NCBI RefSeq assembly: GCF_009659535.1
Contig: NZ_VJZZ01000009.1
Coordinates: 1-64,000 of the forward strand
DNA length: 64,000 nt
Reading direction: 5' to 3'
From: Aggregicoccus sp. 17bor-14
Lineage (GTDB): Bacteria; Myxococcota; Myxococcia; Myxococcales; Myxococcaceae
Position numbers and translations under genes: made by a program. The notes under the pieces were generated by a model. It was not told the DNA's origin. It saw nothing but the letters and a program-made list of their open reading frames with translations, and searched no databases. The stretch's first letter is position 1. Each line of letters starts with the position of its first letter. Shown one piece after another: positions 7,736 to 62,817 of this stretch.

Positions 7736-9142
7736 ATGGCCTCGCTGCGCACCATCCTCGTCGCTGACGATGAGCCGTCCCTGCGGCACATCCTGACGCT
7801 GTCGCTGACGGAGCAGGGCTACGAGGTGCGCAGCGTGGCGGATGGCGAGGAGGCGCTGCGCGAGCTCGCCGCCCGCCCCTACGACGTGCTCGTCTCGGAC
7901 GTGCGGATGCCGCGCCTGGACGGGCTGAGCCTGCTGCCCCGCGCGCTCGAGCTGCAGCCTGCACTCACGGTCATCGTGATGAGCGCGTACGGCTCGCAGG
8001 ACGTCGCGCTGCGCGCGGTGGCCCAGGGGGCCTACGACTACGTCCAGAAGCCCTTCAAGCCCGAGGAACTCGTCCTCGTGCTGCGCAAGGCGGAGGAGCG
8101 CCTGCGCCTGCTGCGCGAGAACCGGCGCCTGCAGGCCGGGCCGGAGCGGGCAGGGGGGCCGCTGGAGCGGATCCTGGGCGAGTCCGAGCCCATCCAGCAG
8201 TTGCGCCGCCAGGTCACCCGGCTCGCACCGGTGACGACCACCGTGCTGATCACCGGCGAGAGCGGGACGGGAAAGGAGCTCGTCGCGCGCGCGCTGCACG
8301 AGCTCTCGCCCCGCGCGGGGATGCCCTTCGTCGCCGTGAACTGCGGCGCCATCCCGGCGGGGCTCATCGAGAGCGAGCTGTTCGGCCACGCGCGCGGCGC
8401 CTTCACGGACGCGCGCAGCGCCAAGCGCGGGCTCATCTCCGAGGCGGACGGCGGCACGCTGCTCCTCGACGAGGTGGGCGAGATGCCGGCCTCCGCCCAG
8501 GTGAAGCTGCTGCGCTTCCTGCAGGAGGGCGAGGTCCGCCCGGTCGGGGAGAGCAAGGTCGAGCGCGTCTCGGTGCGGGTGGTCGCTGCGACGCTGCGCG
8601 ACCTCGGCAAGCTCGTGGCGCGCGGCGAGTTCCGGGAGGACCTCTACTACCGGCTGAACGTGGTGAACCTGCACGTGCCGCCGCTGCGCCAGCGCGCCGA
8701 GGACGTGCCGCTCCTCGCGCGGGGCTTCATCGCGCGCTTCAACCGCGAGCTCAACCGCGAGGTGCCCGTCAGGGCGCTCTCCGCGGAGGCCGAGGCCCTG
8801 GTCCAGTCCTACGCCTGGCCGGGCAACGTGCGCGAGCTCGAGAACGCGATGGAGCGCGCCGTGCTGCTCGCGGAGGGCGAGCACATCGCCCCCTCGGACC
8901 TGCCCGAGCGGCTCTGGAGCCCGGCACGCACCGCGGCCGGGGCGGCGCCCCTGGCCTCGCAGGACCTCTCGCTCAAGCGCGCCATGCGGGCCCTGGAGGA
9001 GAGCTACATCCGTGCGGCGCTGCAGCGCACGAACGGCAACCGCACCCGCGCCGCCGAGATCCTGGAGATCTCCCACCGGGCGCTGCTCTACAAGATCAAG
9101 GAGTACGGCATCGCCCCGGACGCGGACGCCGAGCGCCCCTGA
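7736..9142 (+). CDS. pilR2: NtrC-family sigma-54 response regulator, PilR2-like
   Basis: A 468-residue enhancer-binding protein with three domains. The receiver (residues 1-120) has acidic DDE near residue 11, phospho-acceptor Asp55 in LVSDVRMPR and Lys in YVQKPFK. The AAA+ domain (about 145-385) has Walker A GESGTGKE, Walker B GGTLLLDEVG, the arginine-finger region and the sigma-54 contact loop in the form GAFTDA rather than GAFTGA. The Fis-type helix-turn-helix (about 420-460) contains NRTRAAEILEISHRALLYKI. It is the natural partner of the kinase 61 bases upstream. By position it corresponds to PilR2 of M. xanthus, which acts in type IV pilus-dependent motility. Its own targets cannot be read here. 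Confidence 0.85.
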   Translation: MASLRTILVADDEPSLRHILTLSLTEQGYEVRSVADGEEALRELAARPYDVLVSDVRMPRLDGLSLLPRALELQPALTVIVMSAYGSQDVALRAVAQGAYDYVQKPFKPEELVLVLRKAEERLRLLRENRRLQAGPERAGGPLERILGESEPIQQLRRQVTRLAPVTTTVLITGESGTGKELVARALHELSPRAGMPFVAVNCGAIPAGLIESELFGHARGAFTDARSAKRGLISEADGGTLLLDEVGEMPASAQVKLLRFLQEGEVRPVGESKVERVSVRVVAATLRDLGKLVARGEFREDLYYRLNVVNLHVPPLRQRAEDVPLLARGFIARFNRELNREVPVRALSAEAEALVQSYAWPGNVRELENAMERAVLLAEGEHIAPSDLPERLWSPARTAAGAAPLASQDLSLKRAMRALEESYIRAALQRTNGNRTRAAEILEISHRALLYKIKEYGIAPDADAERP

Positions 9143-53106: not shown

Positions 53107-54633
53107 ATGACGACCGTCGAGATCATCTTCCTGGGCGTGTACTTCACCGTCCTCTGCGTGCTCGCGATGTACGGCTCGCACCGCTACCGGATGGCGTACC
53201 TGTACTACCGGCACAAGTTCAAGCTGCCGACGCCCAAGGGAGTGCTCGCGGCGCTGCCGAAGGTCACCATCCAGCTGCCCATCTTCAACGAGATGTATGT
53301 GGTGGAGCGGCTCGTGGACTCGGTCTGCAAGATCGATTACCCGCGCGAGCTGCTCGAGATCCAGCTGCTGGACGACTCCACCGACGAGACCTGCGCCATC
53401 GCGCGGGCGTGCGTGGAGCGCAACCGGCAGAAGGGCCACAACATCGTCTACATCCACCGCGAGAACCGCGCGGGCTACAAGGCGGGCGCGCTGGAGCACG
53501 GCCTCAAGAGCGCGAGCGGCGAGTTCGTGGCGGTGTTCGACGCGGACTTCGTTCCGAGCCCGGACTTCCTCAAGCGCACGGTGCCCTTCTTCGCGGACGC
53601 GAAGGTGGGCATGGTGCAGGTGCGCTGGGGCCACCTGAACCGCGAGTTCTCCATCCTCACGCAGGCCCAGAGCATCCTGCTGGACGGCCACTTCATCATC
53701 GAGCACACCGCGCGCAACCGCGCCGACTGCTTCTTCAACTTCAACGGCACCGCGGGCATCTGGCGCCGCGAGACCATCGGTGACGCGGGCGGCTGGCAGC
53801 ACGACACGCTCACCGAGGACCTGGACCTCAGCTACCGTGCCCAGCTCAAGGGCTGGCAGTTCATCTTCCTGCCCGAGGTGGTGTCCCCCGCCGAGGTGCC
53901 GGTGGACATGAACGCCTTCAAGAGCCAGCAGCACCGCTGGGCGAAGGGCTCCATCCAGACGGCGAAGAAGCTGCTGCCCACCATCCTCAAGAGCGACCTG
54001 CCGCTCGCGGTGAAGCGCGAGGCCTTCTTCCACCTCACCAACAACGCGGCCTACCTGCTGCTGGTGCTGCTCAGCGTGATGATGCCGCTGAGCATGGTGG
54101 TGCGCTTCCAGCACGGCCTCTACGGCACGCTGTTCCTGGACCTGCCCTTCTTCCTCACCGCCACCGCGAGCGTCGCCTTCTTCTACTTCGCGACCCAGCG
54201 CGAGCAGGGCTACAAGGGCTGGGACCGGGTGAAGTACCTGCCCTTCCTGATGAGCCTCGGTATCGGCATGGCGATCAACAACGCCAAGGCCGTGATGGAG
54301 GCGCTGCTCAACCAGCAGTCCGGCTTCGCGCGCACGCCGAAGACCGGCAGCGAGGGCAAGGCGCAGAAGGTGGTGAAGAAGGCGTACAAGGGCAGCAAGA
54401 CGATGATGCCCGTGGTGGAGATGCTCTTCGCGCTCTACTTCACCGGCGCGCTCTGGTTCGCCATCGACGTGAAGATCTACACCTCGGTGCCCTTCCTGCT
54501 GCTCTTCCAGCTGGGCTTCCTCTACGTGGGCGTCTCCAGCCTCGTGCAGGATCGCTTCAAGTTCCTGCGCCGCGCCTCGAGCGCGCCGGCGCTCCCGGCC
54601 GCGGCCGAGGAGCAGGCCCGCCGCGCCGCCTAG
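53107..54633 (+). CDS. Processive GT2 beta-glycan synthase (CslA/BcsA-like)
   Basis: A 508-residue inner-membrane glycosyltransferase. One N-terminal helix (residues 5-24) precedes the GT2 domain, with VTIQLPIFNEMYVVERLVDS, the first Asp in LLDDSTDETC, DAD in AVFDADFVPSPDF, TEDLDLSYRA, and QQHRWAKGS, which is the D,D,D,QxxRW set of processive synthases. Several C-terminal helices follow (about 305-480), with a Lys-rich cytoplasmic loop (about 405-435). The FNEMYVVERLVDSV and FNGTAGIWRRETI forms are close to glucomannan/mannan-type CslA synthases. The product is probably a beta-linked exopolysaccharide. No PilZ domain is present. It is driven by a consensus promoter. No other exopolysaccharide genes are adjacent. 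Confidence 0.87.
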   Translation: MTTVEIIFLGVYFTVLCVLAMYGSHRYRMAYLYYRHKFKLPTPKGVLAALPKVTIQLPIFNEMYVVERLVDSVCKIDYPRELLEIQLLDDSTDETCAIARACVERNRQKGHNIVYIHRENRAGYKAGALEHGLKSASGEFVAVFDADFVPSPDFLKRTVPFFADAKVGMVQVRWGHLNREFSILTQAQSILLDGHFIIEHTARNRADCFFNFNGTAGIWRRETIGDAGGWQHDTLTEDLDLSYRAQLKGWQFIFLPEVVSPAEVPVDMNAFKSQQHRWAKGSIQTAKKLLPTILKSDLPLAVKREAFFHLTNNAAYLLLVLLSVMMPLSMVVRFQHGLYGTLFLDLPFFLTATASVAFFYFATQREQGYKGWDRVKYLPFLMSLGIGMAINNAKAVMEALLNQQSGFARTPKTGSEGKAQKVVKKAYKGSKTMMPVVEMLFALYFTGALWFAIDVKIYTSVPFLLLFQLGFLYVGVSSLVQDRFKFLRRASSAPALPAAAEEQARRAA

Positions 54634-55356: not shown

Positions 55357-56334
55357 ATGGCCCTTCCGCGCGCCCCCCTTGCAGCGCTGTTGACCGTCCT
55401 CCTCCCGCTGCAGGCGTTCGCCCAGGCGCCCCGGGCACCGGCCTCCGCAGGCGCGGACGACGACGGCCTGCTCGCCCCCCTCACGCCCGCGAAGAAGCCC
55501 GCCCGGGCCGCAGCGCCGCACCCCAAGGCCGCTCCGGCCCCTGCGGCGCCCGCCGCCGAAGACGACGACGAGCTCATCGCGCCGCTGGTCACCCGCCCCA
55601 CCTTCCTGCGCGTGCGCCTGCCCGCGGGGCTGAAGGGCGCGCGGCTGCTGGTGGACGGGGACGATGCGGGCGCGCTGCCTGGCGCGGAGGTCTCGGTGCG
55701 CCCCGGCACGCACCACGTGCTGGTGCGCCGGCCCGGCTACCGCGACTTCAGCACCCGGGTGCGCACGCCCGAGGGCAAGACCACCGAGGTGGGCGCGCAG
55801 CTGGTCGCGGTGGCGGGCGTGCTCGCGGTGGGGGCGGACGTGCCGGGCGCGCGCGTGCGCATCGACGGCAAGGCGGCCGGCACCGCGCCGCTCGCGGACG
55901 TGGTGCTCACCCCGGGCGCGCACGAGGTGGTGGTGAGCCGCGAGGGCTACTTCGAGGAGCGCTCGCGCCTCAGCGTGAAGGCCGGCCGCGACTACCGGGT
56001 GGACGCGCAGCTGCGCCCGGACGGCAGCCTCCCGGTGGCCGCGAGCGACCGCCCCGAGGCCGCCGCCGCGGGGGGCGCCATCGCGCTCGCCCCGCGCGCG
56101 CTGCCGCAGGAGCCTGCCGCCGGGGCGCTCGCCCCCACGCCCTCGCTCGCGGCGCCGGCGCCCTGGTTCAAGCGCTGGTACGTCTGGGCGGGCGTGGGCG
56201 CGGTGGCCACGGCCGCGGTGGTGGGCACGGTGGCGGCCACGCACGGCGGCGGGACGGCGCAGCCCTTCACGCCAGGCGAGGTGTGCGGCGGCAACTGCGA
56301 CGCCGTGCTGCACGCCCAGCCCGCGCGGCGCTAG
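55357..56334 (+). CDS. PEGA-domain envelope protein
   Basis: A 325-residue exported protein. Signal peptide (LLTVLLPLQAFA) is followed by an Ala/Pro-rich linker with DDD clusters, then two PEGA-type repeats (about residues 78-150 and 150-225). Paired motifs are VDGDDAGALPGAEVSVRPGTHHVLVRRPGY and VRIDGKAAGTAPLADV ending in PGAHEVVVSREGY, the typical PEGA ending. A single C-terminal helix (WYVWAGVGAVATAAVVGTVAA) is followed by a short Cys-containing tail. PEGA domains are structural surface modules, and no enzymatic role is expected. Confidence 0.85.
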   Translation: MALPRAPLAALLTVLLPLQAFAQAPRAPASAGADDDGLLAPLTPAKKPARAAAPHPKAAPAPAAPAAEDDDELIAPLVTRPTFLRVRLPAGLKGARLLVDGDDAGALPGAEVSVRPGTHHVLVRRPGYRDFSTRVRTPEGKTTEVGAQLVAVAGVLAVGADVPGARVRIDGKAAGTAPLADVVLTPGAHEVVVSREGYFEERSRLSVKAGRDYRVDAQLRPDGSLPVAASDRPEAAAAGGAIALAPRALPQEPAAGALAPTPSLAAPAPWFKRWYVWAGVGAVATAAVVGTVAATHGGGTAQPFTPGEVCGGNCDAVLHAQPARR

Positions 56335-56419: not shown

Positions 56420-56507
56420 TTACCTCGTCGCGCGCGGAGGGCCGGGGACTTACCTCTAGCGGGTCGGGCCGATGGGCGGCCCTCCACCTTCCCGCGAGCG
56501 CACGTTC

Positions 56508-57521
56508 ATGGAGATCCACAGCATCGGCAGCCCGGGCCTCTGGGCCGGCTTCATCGCCTTCGTCCTGGCGATGCTGGCCCTGGACCTGGGCGTGTTCCAC
56601 CGCAAGGCGCACGTGGTGAAGGTGCGCGAGGCGGCGGTGTGGAGCGCCATCTGGGTGGGCATCTCGCTGCTCTTCAACCTCGGGGTGCTCTGGCGCTTCG
56701 GTGCGCAGCCGGCCACCGAGTTCCTCACCGGCTACCTCATCGAGAAGAGCCTCTCGGTCGACAACATCTTCATCTTCGTCGTCATCTTCGGGGCGATGAA
56801 GATCCCGGCGATCTACCAGCACCGGGTGCTGTTCTGGGGCATCCTCAGCGCGCTCGTGCTGCGCGCGGCGATGATCTTCGCGGGCGTGGCCCTGCTCGAG
56901 CGCTTCCACTGGCTCATCTACGTCTTCGGCGCCTTCCTGGTCGTCACCGGCGTGAAGCTGTACCGGGACTGGCGCAAGGGCGCGGAGGCGCACCCGGAGG
57001 AGAGCCGCGTGCTGGGGATGATCCGCCGCGTGCTGCCCTCCACGACCCAGCTGCACGGCCCCCACTTCTTCGCCCGCGAGGGCGGCCGCTGGCTCGCGAC
57101 GCCGCTGTTCATGGCGCTGCTGCTGGTGGAGCTGACGGACGTGGTGTTCGCGCTGGACTCCATCCCCGCCATCTTCGCGGTGACGCGCGACCCCTTCATC
57201 GTCTTCACCTCGAACATCTTCGCCATCCTCGGCCTGCGCAGCCTCTTCTTCCTGCTGGCGGGGATGGTGGACCGCTTCCACTACCTCAAGGTGGGGCTCG
57301 CCGGGATCCTCGCCTTCGTGGGCCTGAAGATGGCGCTGGTGGACGTGGTGCACGTGCACCCCTTCGTCTCGCTCGCGGTCATCGCGGCCATGCTCGTCGC
57401 CTCCATCCTCGCCTCGTTCTCGTACGCGAAGCGCCACCCGGGCGCGGCCGCGTCCGCCCCGGCCGAGCGCGAGGCGCGCGAGGTGGCGGCGCACCGCGGG
57501 CAGCCGGTGGAGGAGGCCTGA
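56508..57521 (+). CDS. TerC/Alx-family membrane protein (probable metal exporter)
   Basis: A 337-residue protein with eight or nine membrane helices. Family motifs are EKSLSVDNIFIFVVIFG and ELTDVVFALDSIPAIFAVTRDPFIVFTSN, whose acidic and Asn/Ser residues in helices form the metal path. The TerC/Alx group includes manganese exporters. The ORF extends upstream to 56472, but ATG at 56508 matches the family N-terminus. The Ala/Pro tail after KRHPGAA is variable. It is followed 28 bases later by the convergent transposase remnant, and preceded by a hairpin leader that could hold a regulatory element. Confidence 0.9.
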   Translation: MEIHSIGSPGLWAGFIAFVLAMLALDLGVFHRKAHVVKVREAAVWSAIWVGISLLFNLGVLWRFGAQPATEFLTGYLIEKSLSVDNIFIFVVIFGAMKIPAIYQHRVLFWGILSALVLRAAMIFAGVALLERFHWLIYVFGAFLVVTGVKLYRDWRKGAEAHPEESRVLGMIRRVLPSTTQLHGPHFFAREGGRWLATPLFMALLLVELTDVVFALDSIPAIFAVTRDPFIVFTSNIFAILGLRSLFFLLAGMVDRFHYLKVGLAGILAFVGLKMALVDVVHVHPFVSLAVIAAMLVASILASFSYAKRHPGAAASAPAEREAREVAAHRGQPVEEA

Positions 57522-57549: not shown

Positions 57550-58749
57550 TCATGCGGTACCTCCTGCTGCGGCGAGTGGCGCAGCGGGCAGTTGCGGGAT
57601 GAAGGGGCGGCGGTGCTTGGCGACGAAGTAGATGGCGAGCAGCAGCTTGTGCATGCAGGCGGTGAGGGCCAGCTTCGGGGGCTTGCCGCGCGACAGCAGC
57701 CGCGCGTAGTGGGCCTTGAGCCAGGCGTTCCTCTTCACCGCGGTGAGGACGGGCCTCCACAGCGCGGCACGCAGCGCCGCGTGGCCAATGGGGGAGAGGG
57801 ACGCACTTGAGGACGTGCGCTTGCCCGACTGGCGCAGGCCCGGTGCGAGGCCCACGCAGGCCACCAGGGCGGCAGGAGACTCGAAGCGGGTGATGTCACC
57901 CAGCTCGGCCACCCGCTTGGCGGCCGAGCTGGGTGCCCACGCCGTCGATGGTGGTGAGCAGCGTGCCCACCTCGTGCGCTTCCAACGTGCCCGCGATGTC
58001 GCGGTCCAGCTCGCGGATGCGCGCACGCAGCACGTCCAGGTCCTGGCAGGCGTGCTTCACCTGGAGGCGGTAGGCGTGCGCGTGGTGGGCGCCCACGGAA
58101 GCCCCCGCCGCGGCAATCAGCGTCTGGGCGAGCTCGAGGCCGACGAAGTGCCGCCCGTCGTACTTGAGGTGCGAGACGGCGCGCGGCCGGGCAGCGGCGA
58201 AGGCGCGGGCGGTGGGGTACTCCGAGAGAAGCGCGGTGGCCAATTCCGAGTCCAGCCGGCGCCCGTGGCGGGTGAATTCGGGAAAGCCCAAGTCGACGAG
58301 GCGGTGCAACTGGCGCGTCTTGTCCCCAAACTCCTGCACGAGGCGGTCGCGGTGGCGCACCAGCTCACGCAACTCCTCCGTGGCCGACTCCGGCAGGCGC
58401 GTGGGAGGCGGGCGCTTTTGCTGGGCGAAACGCGCCAGGCCCAGGGCGTCGACGGCGTCCGTCTTGGTGCGCTGCAAGTCCTCCTCGGCGAAGCGCCGGG
58501 TGCGCAGCGGATTGACGAGTGCCACCGCAAAGCCGTGGGCGGCGAGCCAGGCGAAGAGGTTTTTCCAGTAGTGCCCGTCGCCTCCAGGACGAGAAGCACG
58601 TCCTCGGGGGAGGCCAAAAGCTCCAGCAGCTTCTGGTACCCGCCCGCGTCCTCGCCGAAGGCCGTGGGCTTGAGAAGCACCTCGCCTTGCGCATCCACTG
58701 CCGCCACCACGTGCCGCTCCGACGCGACGTCCACTCCGACGTAGCGCAT
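57550..58749 (-). pseudogene. IS110-family transposase broken by two single-base frameshifts
   Basis: The reconstructed protein is about 400 residues. Frame 1 starts at 58749 with RYVGVDVASERHVVAAVD, the DEDD-type Asp motif, and reaches VLEATG. Near 58573, one C appears missing in a run of Cs (GGGCCAC would restore HYWKNLFAWLAAHGFA). The second frame runs with VALVNPLRTRRFAEEDLQRTKTDAVDALGLARFA, VKHACQDLD and TTIDGVGT. A second shift near 57938 (one extra C in GGCACCCAGC) moves to KRVAELGDITRFESPAALVACVGLAPG and HKLLLAIYFVAKHRRPFIPQ. Both breaks sit in C-runs, so sequencing error is possible. If real, the element is dead. No terminal inverted repeats or duplication are visible, as usual for IS110. 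Confidence 0.88.
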
Positions 58750-59127
58750 ACCGCCTCCCCCTCTGACGGAGGGTGCCCGAGAGCCTCGCAGCCGGCGTCC
58801 CTGCCCACGCTTGTCCATGCGAGGACTCGGCTTGAGGGCCGGCCTCCCGATGCCGTCCGGGCGCAAGACGCCGGAGGAGGGCGCCACTCTCAGGCCCGAG
58901 GACACCGCCTCAGCGCGCGCACGGCGACCCTCTCCCGGTTTCCGTCCGCTCCTCTCTACACCTCCTGCAGTGCGACCGGCTCTTGCCCTGCGGGGACCCG
59001 TGGTGGAGGAGATACAAGCGCCGGGCGGTGAACGTAGGGCTGCGCCGCGAGCAAGGCGCCCGCACGCTCGGAGGGGAACAGCCTCGGCGCTGGGCGCAGC
59101 GCTCACCCCGCGTGAGGGCGAAGGCGC
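58750..59127. other. Gene-free stretch between the transposase and the beta-lactamase
   Basis: 378 bases without a credible gene. The part next to 58750-58800 probably contains the promoter-proximal end of the IS110 element. The rest is GC-rich with no recognisable promoter, terminator or RNA, and the ORFs that cross it have low-complexity composition. The insertion-element end cannot be fixed without a second copy. Confidence 0.6.
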
Positions 59128-60036
59128 TCAGGGCGCCTTGCCCTCGGCCTCCTTCGCGAGCCGCTCGCTGAGCCCCTGCTCCGCGCGCTCCGCGTACGCG
59201 CGGCAGGCGCCGGCGTCGAGGAAGGCCGCGCGCCCCCCGCTCGCACTTGCCTTCCACTGCGCGAAGAGGCGGCTGGCCGCGGGATGCGTGGGAATCATCA
59301 CGTCACAGGGCAGCTCGCGCACCGTGGCGATGCTGCGCCGCAGCTGCGCCACGCGCGCCGCGTCCGCGCTGAAGCGAAAGTGTGGCGCGGCGACCGCACT
59401 GAGGCTCTCCGCGTACACCACGTCCGCGCAGCGCTCCCCCTCACAGCTGCGCCAGGTCCAGGTGACGCCGCCCGGCGTGTGGCCCGGCGTGTGGTGCGCG
59501 GTGACGACGACGTCACCCAGCCGCACGCTCTGCCCGTCCGCCACGGGCGTCACCTCACGCACGGCGGGGAAGTGCCTGAAGGCGACGAAGCCGACCTGCG
59601 GGTCGTCCGGGGCCACGGCTCCCGCGCGCAGCGCCGCCGCACCCGCGGGGCTCGCGGCCACGCGCGCGCCGCTCAGGCGCTGCAGCGCGGCCAGGCCCCC
59701 CGCGTGGTCGGAGTGGGCGTGCGAGTTGAGCAGCCACTTCACGTCCCGCAGCGAGAAGCCCAGCGTGCGCAGGCTCCGGGCGATGCGCGGCGCGGACTGG
59801 GGCAGCGCGCCGTCGAGCAGGATGAGCCCCCGCCCTGTGTCGATGAGCACCGAGGAGAGCCCCGCCACGCCGACGTAGTAGGTGTTGCCGTACACGCGGA
59901 AGGGCGCCTGCGGCGCGTTCCACGCGGCGCAGGCGTCGCAGCGGATGGGCTTCGTGTCGGAGGAGGGGGGCAGCGACGCAGGCGGCGAGGCGGCTGCGGC
60001 GCAGGGCAGCAGGAGCAGCAGGGCGAGCAGTCTCAT
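59128..60036 (-). CDS. Subclass B3 metallo-beta-lactamase
   Basis: A 302-residue exported enzyme with a signal peptide (LLALLLLLPCAAAA). The metal ligands follow the B3 pattern: His106, His108, Asp110, His111 in NSHAHSDHAGG, His186 in HHTPGHTPGG, and His251 in IPTHPAAS. B3 enzymes use the HxHxDH set with no Cys ligand, as here. FRVYGNTYYVG and SSVLIDTGRGLILLDG are typical of the group. An active site is therefore intact, and carbapenem or other beta-lactam hydrolysis is expected of the family. Four Cys are in the mature part, none at a metal position. A degenerate IS110 lies downstream. The flanking genes are ordinary chromosomal genes. Confidence 0.92.
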   Translation of the reverse strand: MRLLALLLLLPCAAAASPPASLPPSSDTKPIRCDACAAWNAPQAPFRVYGNTYYVGVAGLSSVLIDTGRGLILLDGALPQSAPRIARSLRTLGFSLRDVKWLLNSHAHSDHAGGLAALQRLSGARVAASPAGAAALRAGAVAPDDPQVGFVAFRHFPAVREVTPVADGQSVRLGDVVVTAHHTPGHTPGGVTWTWRSCEGERCADVVYAESLSAVAAPHFRFSADAARVAQLRRSIATVRELPCDVMIPTHPAASRLFAQWKASASGGRAAFLDAGACRAYAERAEQGLSERLAKEAEGKAP

Positions 60037-60110: not shown

Positions 60111-61664
60111 TCAGTCGAAGAGCGCCTGCACGAACTCGTGCGGCTCGAAGCGGCGCAGGTCCGCCACCTTCTCGCCGACGCCCACCCACACCACGGGCAG
60201 CTTCAGCTCGTCGCAGATGCCGATGATGACGCCGCCCTTGGCGGTGCCGTCCAGCTTGGTGAGCGCGATGGCGGTGACCCCCACCGCCTCGTGGAACTGC
60301 TTCGCCTGCTGGATGGCGTTCTGGCCGTTGGTGGAGTCCAGCACGAGCAGCACCTCGTGCGGCGCGCCCGGCAGCGCCTTGTCCAGCACGCGCTTCACCT
60401 TGCGCAGCTCCTCCATCAGCGGGGCCTTGGTGTGCAGGCGGCCTGCGGTGTCCACGATCACCACGTCCGCGCCCGCGTCGCGCGCGCGCTTCACGCCCTC
60501 GAAGGCGACTGAGCCGGGGTCTCCGCCCTCGGGGCCCTTCACCAGCTCGGCACCGGCGCGCTCGCTCCACACGTCCAGCTGCTCGCTCGCGGCAGCGCGG
60601 AAGGTGTCGCCCGCGGCGAGCACCACCTTCTTGCCCGAGTCGCGCAGCTTCGCGGCGAGCTTGCCGATGGTGGTCGTCTTCCCGGCGCCGTTCACCCCCA
60701 CCACCATCACCACGTGCGGGGGGCCGCCGCCCTCGAGCGAGCGGGGCACCGGCAGCGAGACGATGCGCTGCACCTCCTCGCGGATGACGTCCTTGATGCG
60801 CTCGGAGTTGGAGAGCTCGTTGCGCTTGAGCCGCTCGCGCGCCACCTCCACCAGGTTGCTCGCGGTGCGCACGCCGATGTCCGCGGTGAAGAGGATCTCC
60901 TCCAGCTCCGCGAGCACGCTCTCGTCCATCGGGCGGCTCTGCCCGAAGAGCCCGTTGAGCCGCGCCATGAAGCCCTGGCTGCGCGTCTTGTCCAGGCCGT
61001 AGGCGAGCGTGTGGCCCGCCTCCGCCTCGACCTTCGCGCGCGCCGCGGCCTCCTCGGCGGCGCGCGCGGCCGCGGCCTCGGCCTCGGCGCGGGCGCGGGC
61101 CTCGGCCTCCTGCCGCTCGGCCTCCTCCTGCTCGCGGCGGCGGCGCTCGCGCGCGTCCTGCTCCGCGAGCTTGCGGATGCGGTACTCCTCGCGCTTCGCC
61201 TCCTCCTCGCGCGCCTTGAGCGCGCGCGCCTCGCCCTCCAGGCGCAGCCGCTCGGCGGCGTCGCGGGCCGCGCGGGCCTGCTGGGCGAGGTCCACGCGCT
61301 CGCGGGCGAGGCGCTCCACCTCCGCGTGGGCGCTCTCGGCCTGTCTCAGGTGCTCGGTCTCCTGGGCGCTGGGCGGCAGCTCCACCCGCAGCCGCGGGGC
61401 GGGCAGGGTGGGCTGCTGCGGCGCGGCCTCGGGGCGCGCGGCCGGGGGCGGCGCGGCGGCGCGCCGGCGCGTCACCACCTTGCGCAGGGCCACCAGCATC
61501 AGCGCGGCGAGCAGCGCGACGCCCGCCACCCCGACGACGTCGCCCACCGGGAAGTTGTCGCGCACCGGCTGCTCCGTGCCCGGGCGCCCCTGGGTGGGGG
61601 GCGGGGCGATGGGAGAGGGCGGGGGCTGCGCGAGCAGCAGCAGGTGGGCAGGAGGCGTCGTCAT
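60111..61664 (-). CDS. ftsY: Signal recognition particle receptor FtsY with N-terminal membrane anchor
   Basis: FtsY docks SRP-ribosome complexes at the membrane. The 517-residue protein has an N-terminal region with a membrane helix ([18 protein letters not shown], about residues 42-60), a highly charged Ala/Glu/Arg coiled coil (about 105-210), the N domain ([25 protein letters not shown]), and the G domain with [44 protein letters not shown] and [12 protein letters not shown]. Many FtsY proteins, as in E. coli, associate peripherally through an A domain. A true N-terminal helix, as in this protein, is the alternative anchored form. ATG at 61664 is chosen because it gives a short tail before that helix. 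Confidence 0.95.
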
Positions 61665-61805
61665 GGGCCCGTCCGCATACCTCAAGAGCCCCCCGGGCGT
61701 CCCAGGGCCCGTGCAGCGCGCCATCCGGCGGTGGACGGCCCCGCGCGCGCCCCGCGTCGGGGCGGTGGATGCCGGCCCGCCGGGCCGCTAAGAATGCGGC
61801 CTGCC

Positions 61806-62416: not shown

Positions 62417-62817
<401 letters not shown>

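What the first reader, a model, noticed from the sequence alone, without database searches (positions are those of the whole stretch)
57550..60036. Intact B3 metallo-beta-lactamase beside a damaged IS110 element
All B3 ligands (His106, His108, Asp110, His111, His186, His251) are present in an exported protein. The adjacent IS110-family gene shows recent mobility in the region. The lactamase could be ancestral in myxobacteria, which make and meet antibiotics, or a mobile acquisition.
Basis: partly seen in the sequence, partly recalled or inferred. Interest (0 to 1): 0.5.

Follow-up and report, generated by a model that had tools for sequence, protein, structure and literature searches.

The report
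Myxobacterial B3 beta-lactamase at rearranged site
A soil bacterium of the Myxococcus family carries an intact-looking gene for a known kind of antibiotic-destroying enzyme, sitting in a spot where its relatives have a different gene, next to a broken jumping gene that probably did not bring it.

Summary
Window 59128-60036 (-) encodes a 302-residue protein with a signal-like N-terminus and all six B3 ligands. It passes NCBIfam's B3 equivalog (317 versus 240 bits), is 53% identical to the solved B3 enzyme Rm3, and groups with B3 lactamases rather than with seven other MBL-fold proteins of its genome. The IS110 gene (57604-58743, -) is real, single-copy and broken into three pieces by two frame changes.

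In 20 of 20 fetched ftsY loci of relatives an M1-peptidase-like gene lies near ftsY, with no lactamase, TerC or IS110 match. Here that peptidase is missing and TerC, IS110 and B3 fill the interval, so the site is lineage-specific. Only 3 of 95 family relatives carry this B3 sublineage (70-72% identity), each at a different locus. Between two genera the gene is 94% identical in DNA against 84-90% for five other genes, which points to transfer within the family. This IS110 was not found in any relative searched, those with the lactamase included, so it is a poor candidate vehicle. 'Recent mobility' is not shown.

Verdict: an ordinary new chromosomal B3 enzyme from a patchy, moving set in Myxococcaceae. 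Hydrolysis is untested.

The parts
59128..60036 (-). subclass B3 metallo-beta-lactamase, 302 aa; ligands H106, H108, D110, H111, H186, H251
57604..57930 (-). IS110-family transposase gene, C-terminal piece (Transposase_20 domain), same frame as the N-terminal piece
57929..58576 (-). IS110-family transposase gene, middle piece, in the other frame
58567..58743 (-). IS110-family transposase gene, N-terminal piece (start of DEDD domain)
58744..58937 (-). non-coding stretch upstream of the IS110 gene, alignable with the IS110 copy on Sandaracinus plasmid pSa001; likely IS left end where a bridge RNA would lie (inferred; fold not better than shuffles)
56472..57521 (+). TerC/Alx family membrane protein; its orthologues in the relatives fetched lie elsewhere, mostly beside an Hsp70-family gene
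60111..61724 (-). ftsY, directly upstream of the lactamase on the same strand (74-base gap)
55357..56334 (+). PEGA-domain protein; left border of the changed interval, found near ftsY in 18 of 20 relatives' loci
53107..54633 (+). family 2 glycosyltransferase of the conserved ftsY neighbourhood

Best explanation
The gene encodes a zinc-dependent subclass B3 beta-lactamase that is most likely exported to the periplasm and hydrolyses beta-lactams there by the canonical two-zinc mechanism (His/His/His and Asp/His/His sites). It is a chromosomal gene of a B3 sublineage that Myxococcaceae hold patchily, pass between genera and carry at different places. In this lineage it ended up between ftsY and the PEGA gene, where relatives have a peptidase gene, together with a relocated terC gene and an IS110 element. 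The IS110 element arrived separately, is broken as assembled, and is a bystander or at most took part in the local rearrangement. Shown: family, ligands, site difference, patchiness, IS state. Inferred: export, activity, order of events.
For: B3 equivalog score and full model coverage. 53% identity to Rm3, 52% to MEM-A1, 47% to SMB-1. Quick tree of 117 rows puts it in a 5-row Myxococcaceae clade (SH-aLRT 97) inside B3, apart from seven MBL-fold proteins of its own genome. M1-peptidase-like gene near ftsY in 20 of 20 relatives' loci, with no match to B3, TerC or the three IS110 pieces in those 20. No close copy of the peptidase in this genome, only partial hits of 29-35%. B3 of this sublineage in G001, G002 and G032 at loci sharing about 1.09 kb plus short repeats. 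B3 DNA 94.0% between G001 and G032 versus 84.2-90.2% for ftsY, M1, GT2, terC and orf. No match to the IS110 middle piece at 1e-20 in 95 family relatives.
Against: No activity or export data. B3 between this genome and G001 (77.6% DNA) lies within the core-gene range (72.1-85.1%), so old presence with loss and relocation is also possible. The window's genus is represented by one genome in the family set, so timing cannot be resolved. YAES stands where Rm3, MEM-A1 and L1 have YADS; its effect is unknown. The frame changes in IS110 could be assembly errors. The seven outgroup rows are long branches and the careful tree did not finish.
Confidence: 0.78

Rival explanations
1. The lactamase is ancestral in this branch of Myxococcaceae; most relatives lost it, and the differing loci reflect ordinary genome shuffling rather than transfer.
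For: The window protein and the three 70-72% copies form one clade, and their divergence from the window copy matches core genes. TerC at the same site appears to be a relocated native gene, so genes do move here.
Against: 3 of 95 relatives only; loci without shared flanking genes; G001-G032 copies more alike than all five other genes compared.
Confidence: 0.25
2. The IS110 element carried or directly caused the arrival of the lactamase at this site.
For: The IS lies between TerC and B3 in an interval that differs from all 20 relatives' loci fetched.
Against: The three relatives with this B3 have no match to this IS110. The IS is one broken copy. That IS110 elements are simple IS without cargo is recalled, not tested.
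Confidence: 0.08
3. In relatives the gene was moved by an IS91-type rolling-circle element, and the window copy descends from such a move.
For: An IS91-type zinc-binding transposase fragment lies 4.9 kb from B3 in G001 (L036:13335-13919; Pfam Zn_Tnp_IS91, 56 bits), and a piece of it, 81% identical over 73 residues, lies 1.8 kb from B3 in G002. The eight other loci of that genus fetched at 9 kb or more gave no such match, save one weak hit of 42 residues. That SMB-1, a related enzyme, is carried by an IS91-like element is recalled.
Against: Fragments only; no match near B3 in G032 or in the window. The eight comparison loci are stable core regions, so the contrast may only reflect variable versus stable DNA.
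Confidence: 0.1
4. An MBL-fold hydrolase that has lost or never had beta-lactamase activity and acts on another substrate.
For: Activity is not predictable from ligands alone; a HARLDQ-type non-B3 family model exists close by.
Against: All ligands canonical; the HARLDQ model scores only 184 against a 350-bit cut-off while B3 passes; nests inside B3 with solved enzymes.
Confidence: 0.07

Closest known systems
Rm3 (PDB 5iqk), B3 lactamase from a functional metagenome
   Same: Same subclass and ligands; cysteines align; 53% identity over 267 residues
   Different: Different tree branch, joining Janthinobacterium rows; YADS in place of YAES
THIN, SMB-1 and MEM-A1 B3 enzymes
   Same: THIN is the best-scoring named family model (291 bits), SMB-1 next (275 bits); 47% identity to SMB-1 and 52% to MEM-A1
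   Different: Cut-offs of the named families shown are missed (THIN 700, SMB-1 400 bits), so it belongs to none of them
L1 of Stenotrophomonas maltophilia
   Same: Subclass B3
   Different: 38% identity only; other Myxococcaceae carry a separate L1-like gene, one measured at 77%
IS110 of Sandaracinus amylolyticus plasmid pSa001
   Same: Transposase middle piece 66% identical; DNA alignable from the non-coding upstream stretch into the gene
   Different: The plasmid copy is annotated as one gene of 1317 bases; the window copy is in three pieces

Membership tests
Subclass B3 metallo-beta-lactamase | HHH/DHH zinc ligands (H116, H118, H196; D120, H121, H263 in BBL numbering) | tested here: met
   Positions 106, 108, 186; 110, 111, 251; motif from passages of PMC10318434
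Subclass B3 metallo-beta-lactamase | Passes a curated B3 model over the whole domain | tested here: met
   NF033105 317.4 bits, cut-off 240, positions 1-257 of 257
Subclass B3 metallo-beta-lactamase | Ser, not Cys, at position 221 | tested here: met
   S211, invariant in 5 of 5 aligned rows and aligned with the Ser of YADS in Rm3; that B3 has Ser221 is recalled
Subclass B3 metallo-beta-lactamase | Tree position inside B3, outside other MBL-fold hydrolases | tested here: met
   (quick tree; careful tree unfinished); outgroup is 7 own-genome MBL-fold rows, all long branches
Subclass B3 metallo-beta-lactamase | Hydrolyses beta-lactams with zinc | not testable with these tools
   needs enzyme assay
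THIN / SMB-1 / other named B3 families | Family cut-off score | tested here: not met
   THIN 290.7 of 700; SMB-1 275.3 of 400; AIM 218.2 of 675; L1 180.7 of 560 (best 25 of 37 families shown)
IS110 family transposase | DEDD_Tnp_IS110 and Transposase_20 domains | tested here: met
   Both over Pfam cut-off in separate pieces
IS110 family transposase | One intact reading frame / family cut-off | tested here: not met
   Three pieces in two frames, 38, 105 and 69 bits against 140
IS110 family transposase | Bridge RNA in a non-coding end | tested here: inconclusive
   Upstream stretch aligns with the pSa001 copy, but its RNA fold is no better than shuffles, z 0.69, 156 of 200 shuffles fold at least as well; no Rfam match there at E up to 1

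The most novel reading that the evidence does not exclude
A minimal unit of about 1.09 kb, the B3 gene with roughly 170-180 bases before it and 20-40 after it, moves as such between myxobacterial genera and lands at unrelated sites. It may be mobilised by a decayed IS91-type rolling-circle element, whose fragments lie near two of the three copies, or by a way not yet described: in G032 it is framed by an imperfect 37-base direct repeat with an internal inverted repeat.
Probability: 0.1. Interest if true: 0.45.

Novelty: new member of a known kind. Interest (0 to 1): 0.25.

Why it matters
It shows that predatory soil myxobacteria are a reservoir of several different B3 lactamases held patchily. 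Of 96 family genomes, this one included, 24 have a B3-like hit of 140 bits or more, and nine of nine family loci scanned, out of 23, pass the B3 model. One sublineage appears to have moved between genera. This bears on where clinical B3 enzymes come from, but the enzyme itself is an ordinary member and clinical relevance is not implied.

Tried and rejected
IS110 as carrier of the lactamase: rejected as main explanation, since relatives with the B3 gene show no match to the element.

Clean empty site in Archangium: tried with PurC beside B3 in G001. Homology to five other genomes of the genus stops right after PurC, and G004 and G002 also part there, so the stretch is variable and gives no clean empty site.

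The first two scans covered 18 of 23 ORFs chosen with a filter on G+C at third positions. Searches scanned the other 5 and 22 unfiltered ORFs of 100 codons or more; one of the 45 has an IS91-type zinc-binding domain. Likewise G080 is not the nearest genome by FtsY: on the same part it has 82% against 79-88% in the other 19 loci.

Bridge-RNA structure: the fold of the IS110 upstream stretch is not better than shuffles; left open. Azospirillum copies align only within the gene, so no covariation test was made.

Plasmid and phage copies: best plasmid match 48% identity, 7 records at E up to 1e-30, including blaLMB-1 on two enterobacterial plasmids; phage-collection matches of 30-47% in 4 records at E up to 1e-10, three of them Salmonella records. 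No near copy was found there.

Literature: 0 papers in the library held 'metallo-beta-lactamase', 'myxobacteria' and 'subclass B3' together; 1 held 'B3 metallo-beta-lactamase', 'phylogen' and 'Myxococc', and its passage lists MYX of Myxococcus xanthus in a naming table. Of I saw only the listings (12 of 20, 10 of 186 and 10 of 47 papers); no title there is on B3 enzymes of myxobacteria.

Structure prediction was not run; 53% identity to a solved enzyme made it of little use.

Full report
OBSERVATION. The minus-strand ORF at 59128-60036 encodes 302 residues with H106, H108, D110, H111, H186 and H251 as stated. It passes the NCBIfam equivalog for subclass B3 (317.4 bits, cut-off 240). It misses the cut-offs of the named families shown, THIN (290.7 of 700) and SMB-1 (275.3 of 400) being the best-scoring; the HARLDQ non-B3 model scores 184 of 350. 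Solved structures by sequence: Rm3, MEM-A1 and SMB-1 lead, with BLASTP identities of 53, 52 and 47%; L1 is 38%. The IS110 gene lies at 57604-58743 in three pieces that together cover the 343-position model; the outer two share a frame and the middle one does not. Searches with the whole stretch and with the family model find no second copy in the genome, apart from a 31-base match.

SURROUNDINGS. Gene order in the window: GT2 glycosyltransferase, PEGA protein, TerC, IS110, B3, ftsY, then an ORF conserved next to ftsY and RNase P RNA. I located ftsY in relatives (its query was read in a wrong frame, and one search confirmed the places used with the true protein) and fetched 20 loci out of the 71 relatives with a hit. 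In 20 of 20 a homologue (51-87%, or identical in its own locus) of the ORF L058:6012-7772 (586 aa, Pfam Peptidase_M1) lies near ftsY; by the match coordinates it is within 130 bases in 17, about 0.7 kb away in two and 1.5 kb in one. The PEGA protein is found in 18 of 20. None of the 20 has a match to B3, TerC or the IS110 pieces. In the window genome that peptidase is not found, with only partial hits of 29-35% identity. So the interval between PEGA and ftsY was replaced or rebuilt in this lineage.

TERC. In relatives the best TerC match (66-71% identity in the leading hits) stands elsewhere. In 12 of the 13 TerC loci fetched it has an Hsp70-family gene nearby (named by Pfam for L046); the thirteenth, L053, is a short contig. 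The window genome keeps that Hsp70 gene and neighbours from one side on another contig, C8, with no TerC match in the 19.5 kb fetched there. TerC therefore appears to have moved, so the ftsY interval is a place of rearrangement.

THE LACTAMASE IN RELATIVES. Of 96 family genomes, this one included, 24 have a B3-like hit of 140 bits or more, but only four (the window genome, G001, G002, G032) have this sublineage, at 70% identity or more. Around the copies in G001, G002 and G032 the DNA is 92-95% alike over about 1.09 kb; beyond it only short stretches of up to about 200 bases match. Apart from B3, the one protein match between those three loci is a LysR-type pair at 36%. DNA identity of the B3 gene between G001 and G032 is 94.0%, against ftsY 87.8, M1 84.2, GT2 90.2, TerC 89.2 and orf 84.9; between G002 and G032 it is 93.9 against 83.3-87.6; between G001 and G002, of one genus, 96.1 against 89.6-94.2. 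This favours transfer between these genomes. For the window copy versus G001 the figure is 77.6, inside the range 72.1-85.1 of the other genes, so nothing shows a recent arrival in the window genome.

POSSIBLE VEHICLES. I scanned 45 ORFs of 100 codons or more around the three other copies with Pfam. One, L036:13335-13919 in G001, has an IS91-type zinc-binding transposase domain, 4.9 kb from B3. A fragment like it lies 1.8 kb from B3 in G002, and a 99-base DNA match lies in L039, the locus of another B3 gene. No match was found in the G032 locus or in the window. Of ten loci of 9 kb or more that I hold from that genus, only the two with B3 have the fragment; L057 has a weak hit of 42 residues. 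The eight without B3 are stable core loci, so this is a hint and no more.

TREE. 117 rows: the window protein, 24 rows of Myxococcaceae loci (one of them, L080, is the same gene as L004), 79 further loci of the 80 kept out of 142 found, two plasmid enzymes, four solved enzymes and seven MBL-fold proteins out of those one search lists for the same genome. An eighth was dropped because the script found no H.H.DH frame in it; L099, L135 and L148 had stops in the extended frame and were cut or masked. The window protein sits with the rows of G001, G002 (twice) and G032 (SH-aLRT 97), with MAG UBA2363 as next neighbour (99). The Myxococcaceae label needs four changes on the tree, and starred branches force at least two. 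L005 (G079) falls among Massilia rows. The careful tree did not finish in two runs, so supports are SH-aLRT only.

IS110. No match to the middle piece at 1e-20 in 95 family relatives or in 194 phylum genomes, which include family members again, with fewer candidates scored per genome. The nearest found is on plasmid pSa001 of the myxobacterium Sandaracinus amylolyticus (66%), then Azospirillum plasmids (53-55%). The DNA match with pSa001 starts in the non-coding stretch upstream of the gene. IS110 elements use a bridge RNA (starts of the abstracts of PMC11208160 and PMC11208158 in the listing; its position is recalled). The predicted fold is not significant.

LITERATURE. PMC10318434 (passages) gives the ligand motif and says that B3 enzymes are mostly from environmental organisms. 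PMC10740994 (passages) lists MYX of Myxococcus xanthus as a named MBL. I found no paper on B3 lactamases of myxobacteria.

VERDICT. A sound observation of an ordinary enzyme with a moderately interesting history. The IS110 neighbour is broken as assembled and most likely unrelated to the lactamase. Interest 0.25.

Noticed in passing
L006:1501-2355 (G071); L007-L017 and L021 join it in the tree: A separate L1-like B3 lactamase in Myxococcaceae: the L006 protein is 77% identical to Stenotrophomonas maltophilia L1 over 265 residues and scores 522 bits against the L1 model's 560 cut-off. In the tree the L1 row falls inside this group (supports 80-92, only one L1 row included).
   Followed up: partly
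L018, L020, L022, L023: Further B3 genes in the family score best among named families with BJP, CAU or FEZ models, so the family holds several B3 types.
   Followed up: partly
L036:13335-13919 and L038:10296-10514: Fragments of an IS91-type transposase zinc-binding domain near the B3 gene in two Archangium genomes.
   Followed up: partly
L037:7099-7135 and 8255-8291 (G032): Imperfect 37-base direct repeat with internal inverted repeat frames the B3 unit in this genome; not seen in the other loci held.
   Followed up: partly
L037 1100-15063: Several copies of interspersed repeats of about 80-240 bases around the B3 gene, shared in part with L038 and L039.
   Followed up: no
window 56472-57521: TerC orthologue next to ftsY; neighbours that TerC has in relatives are on contig C8 of the same genome.
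   Followed up: yes
window 62418-62812 (-): RNase P RNA, class A, 274.8 bits, near ftsY and an RND efflux gene.
   Followed up: no
window 57894-57936: By eye, a near-palindromic stretch lies at the second frame change of the IS110 gene and could favour mutation or assembly error there.
   Followed up: no
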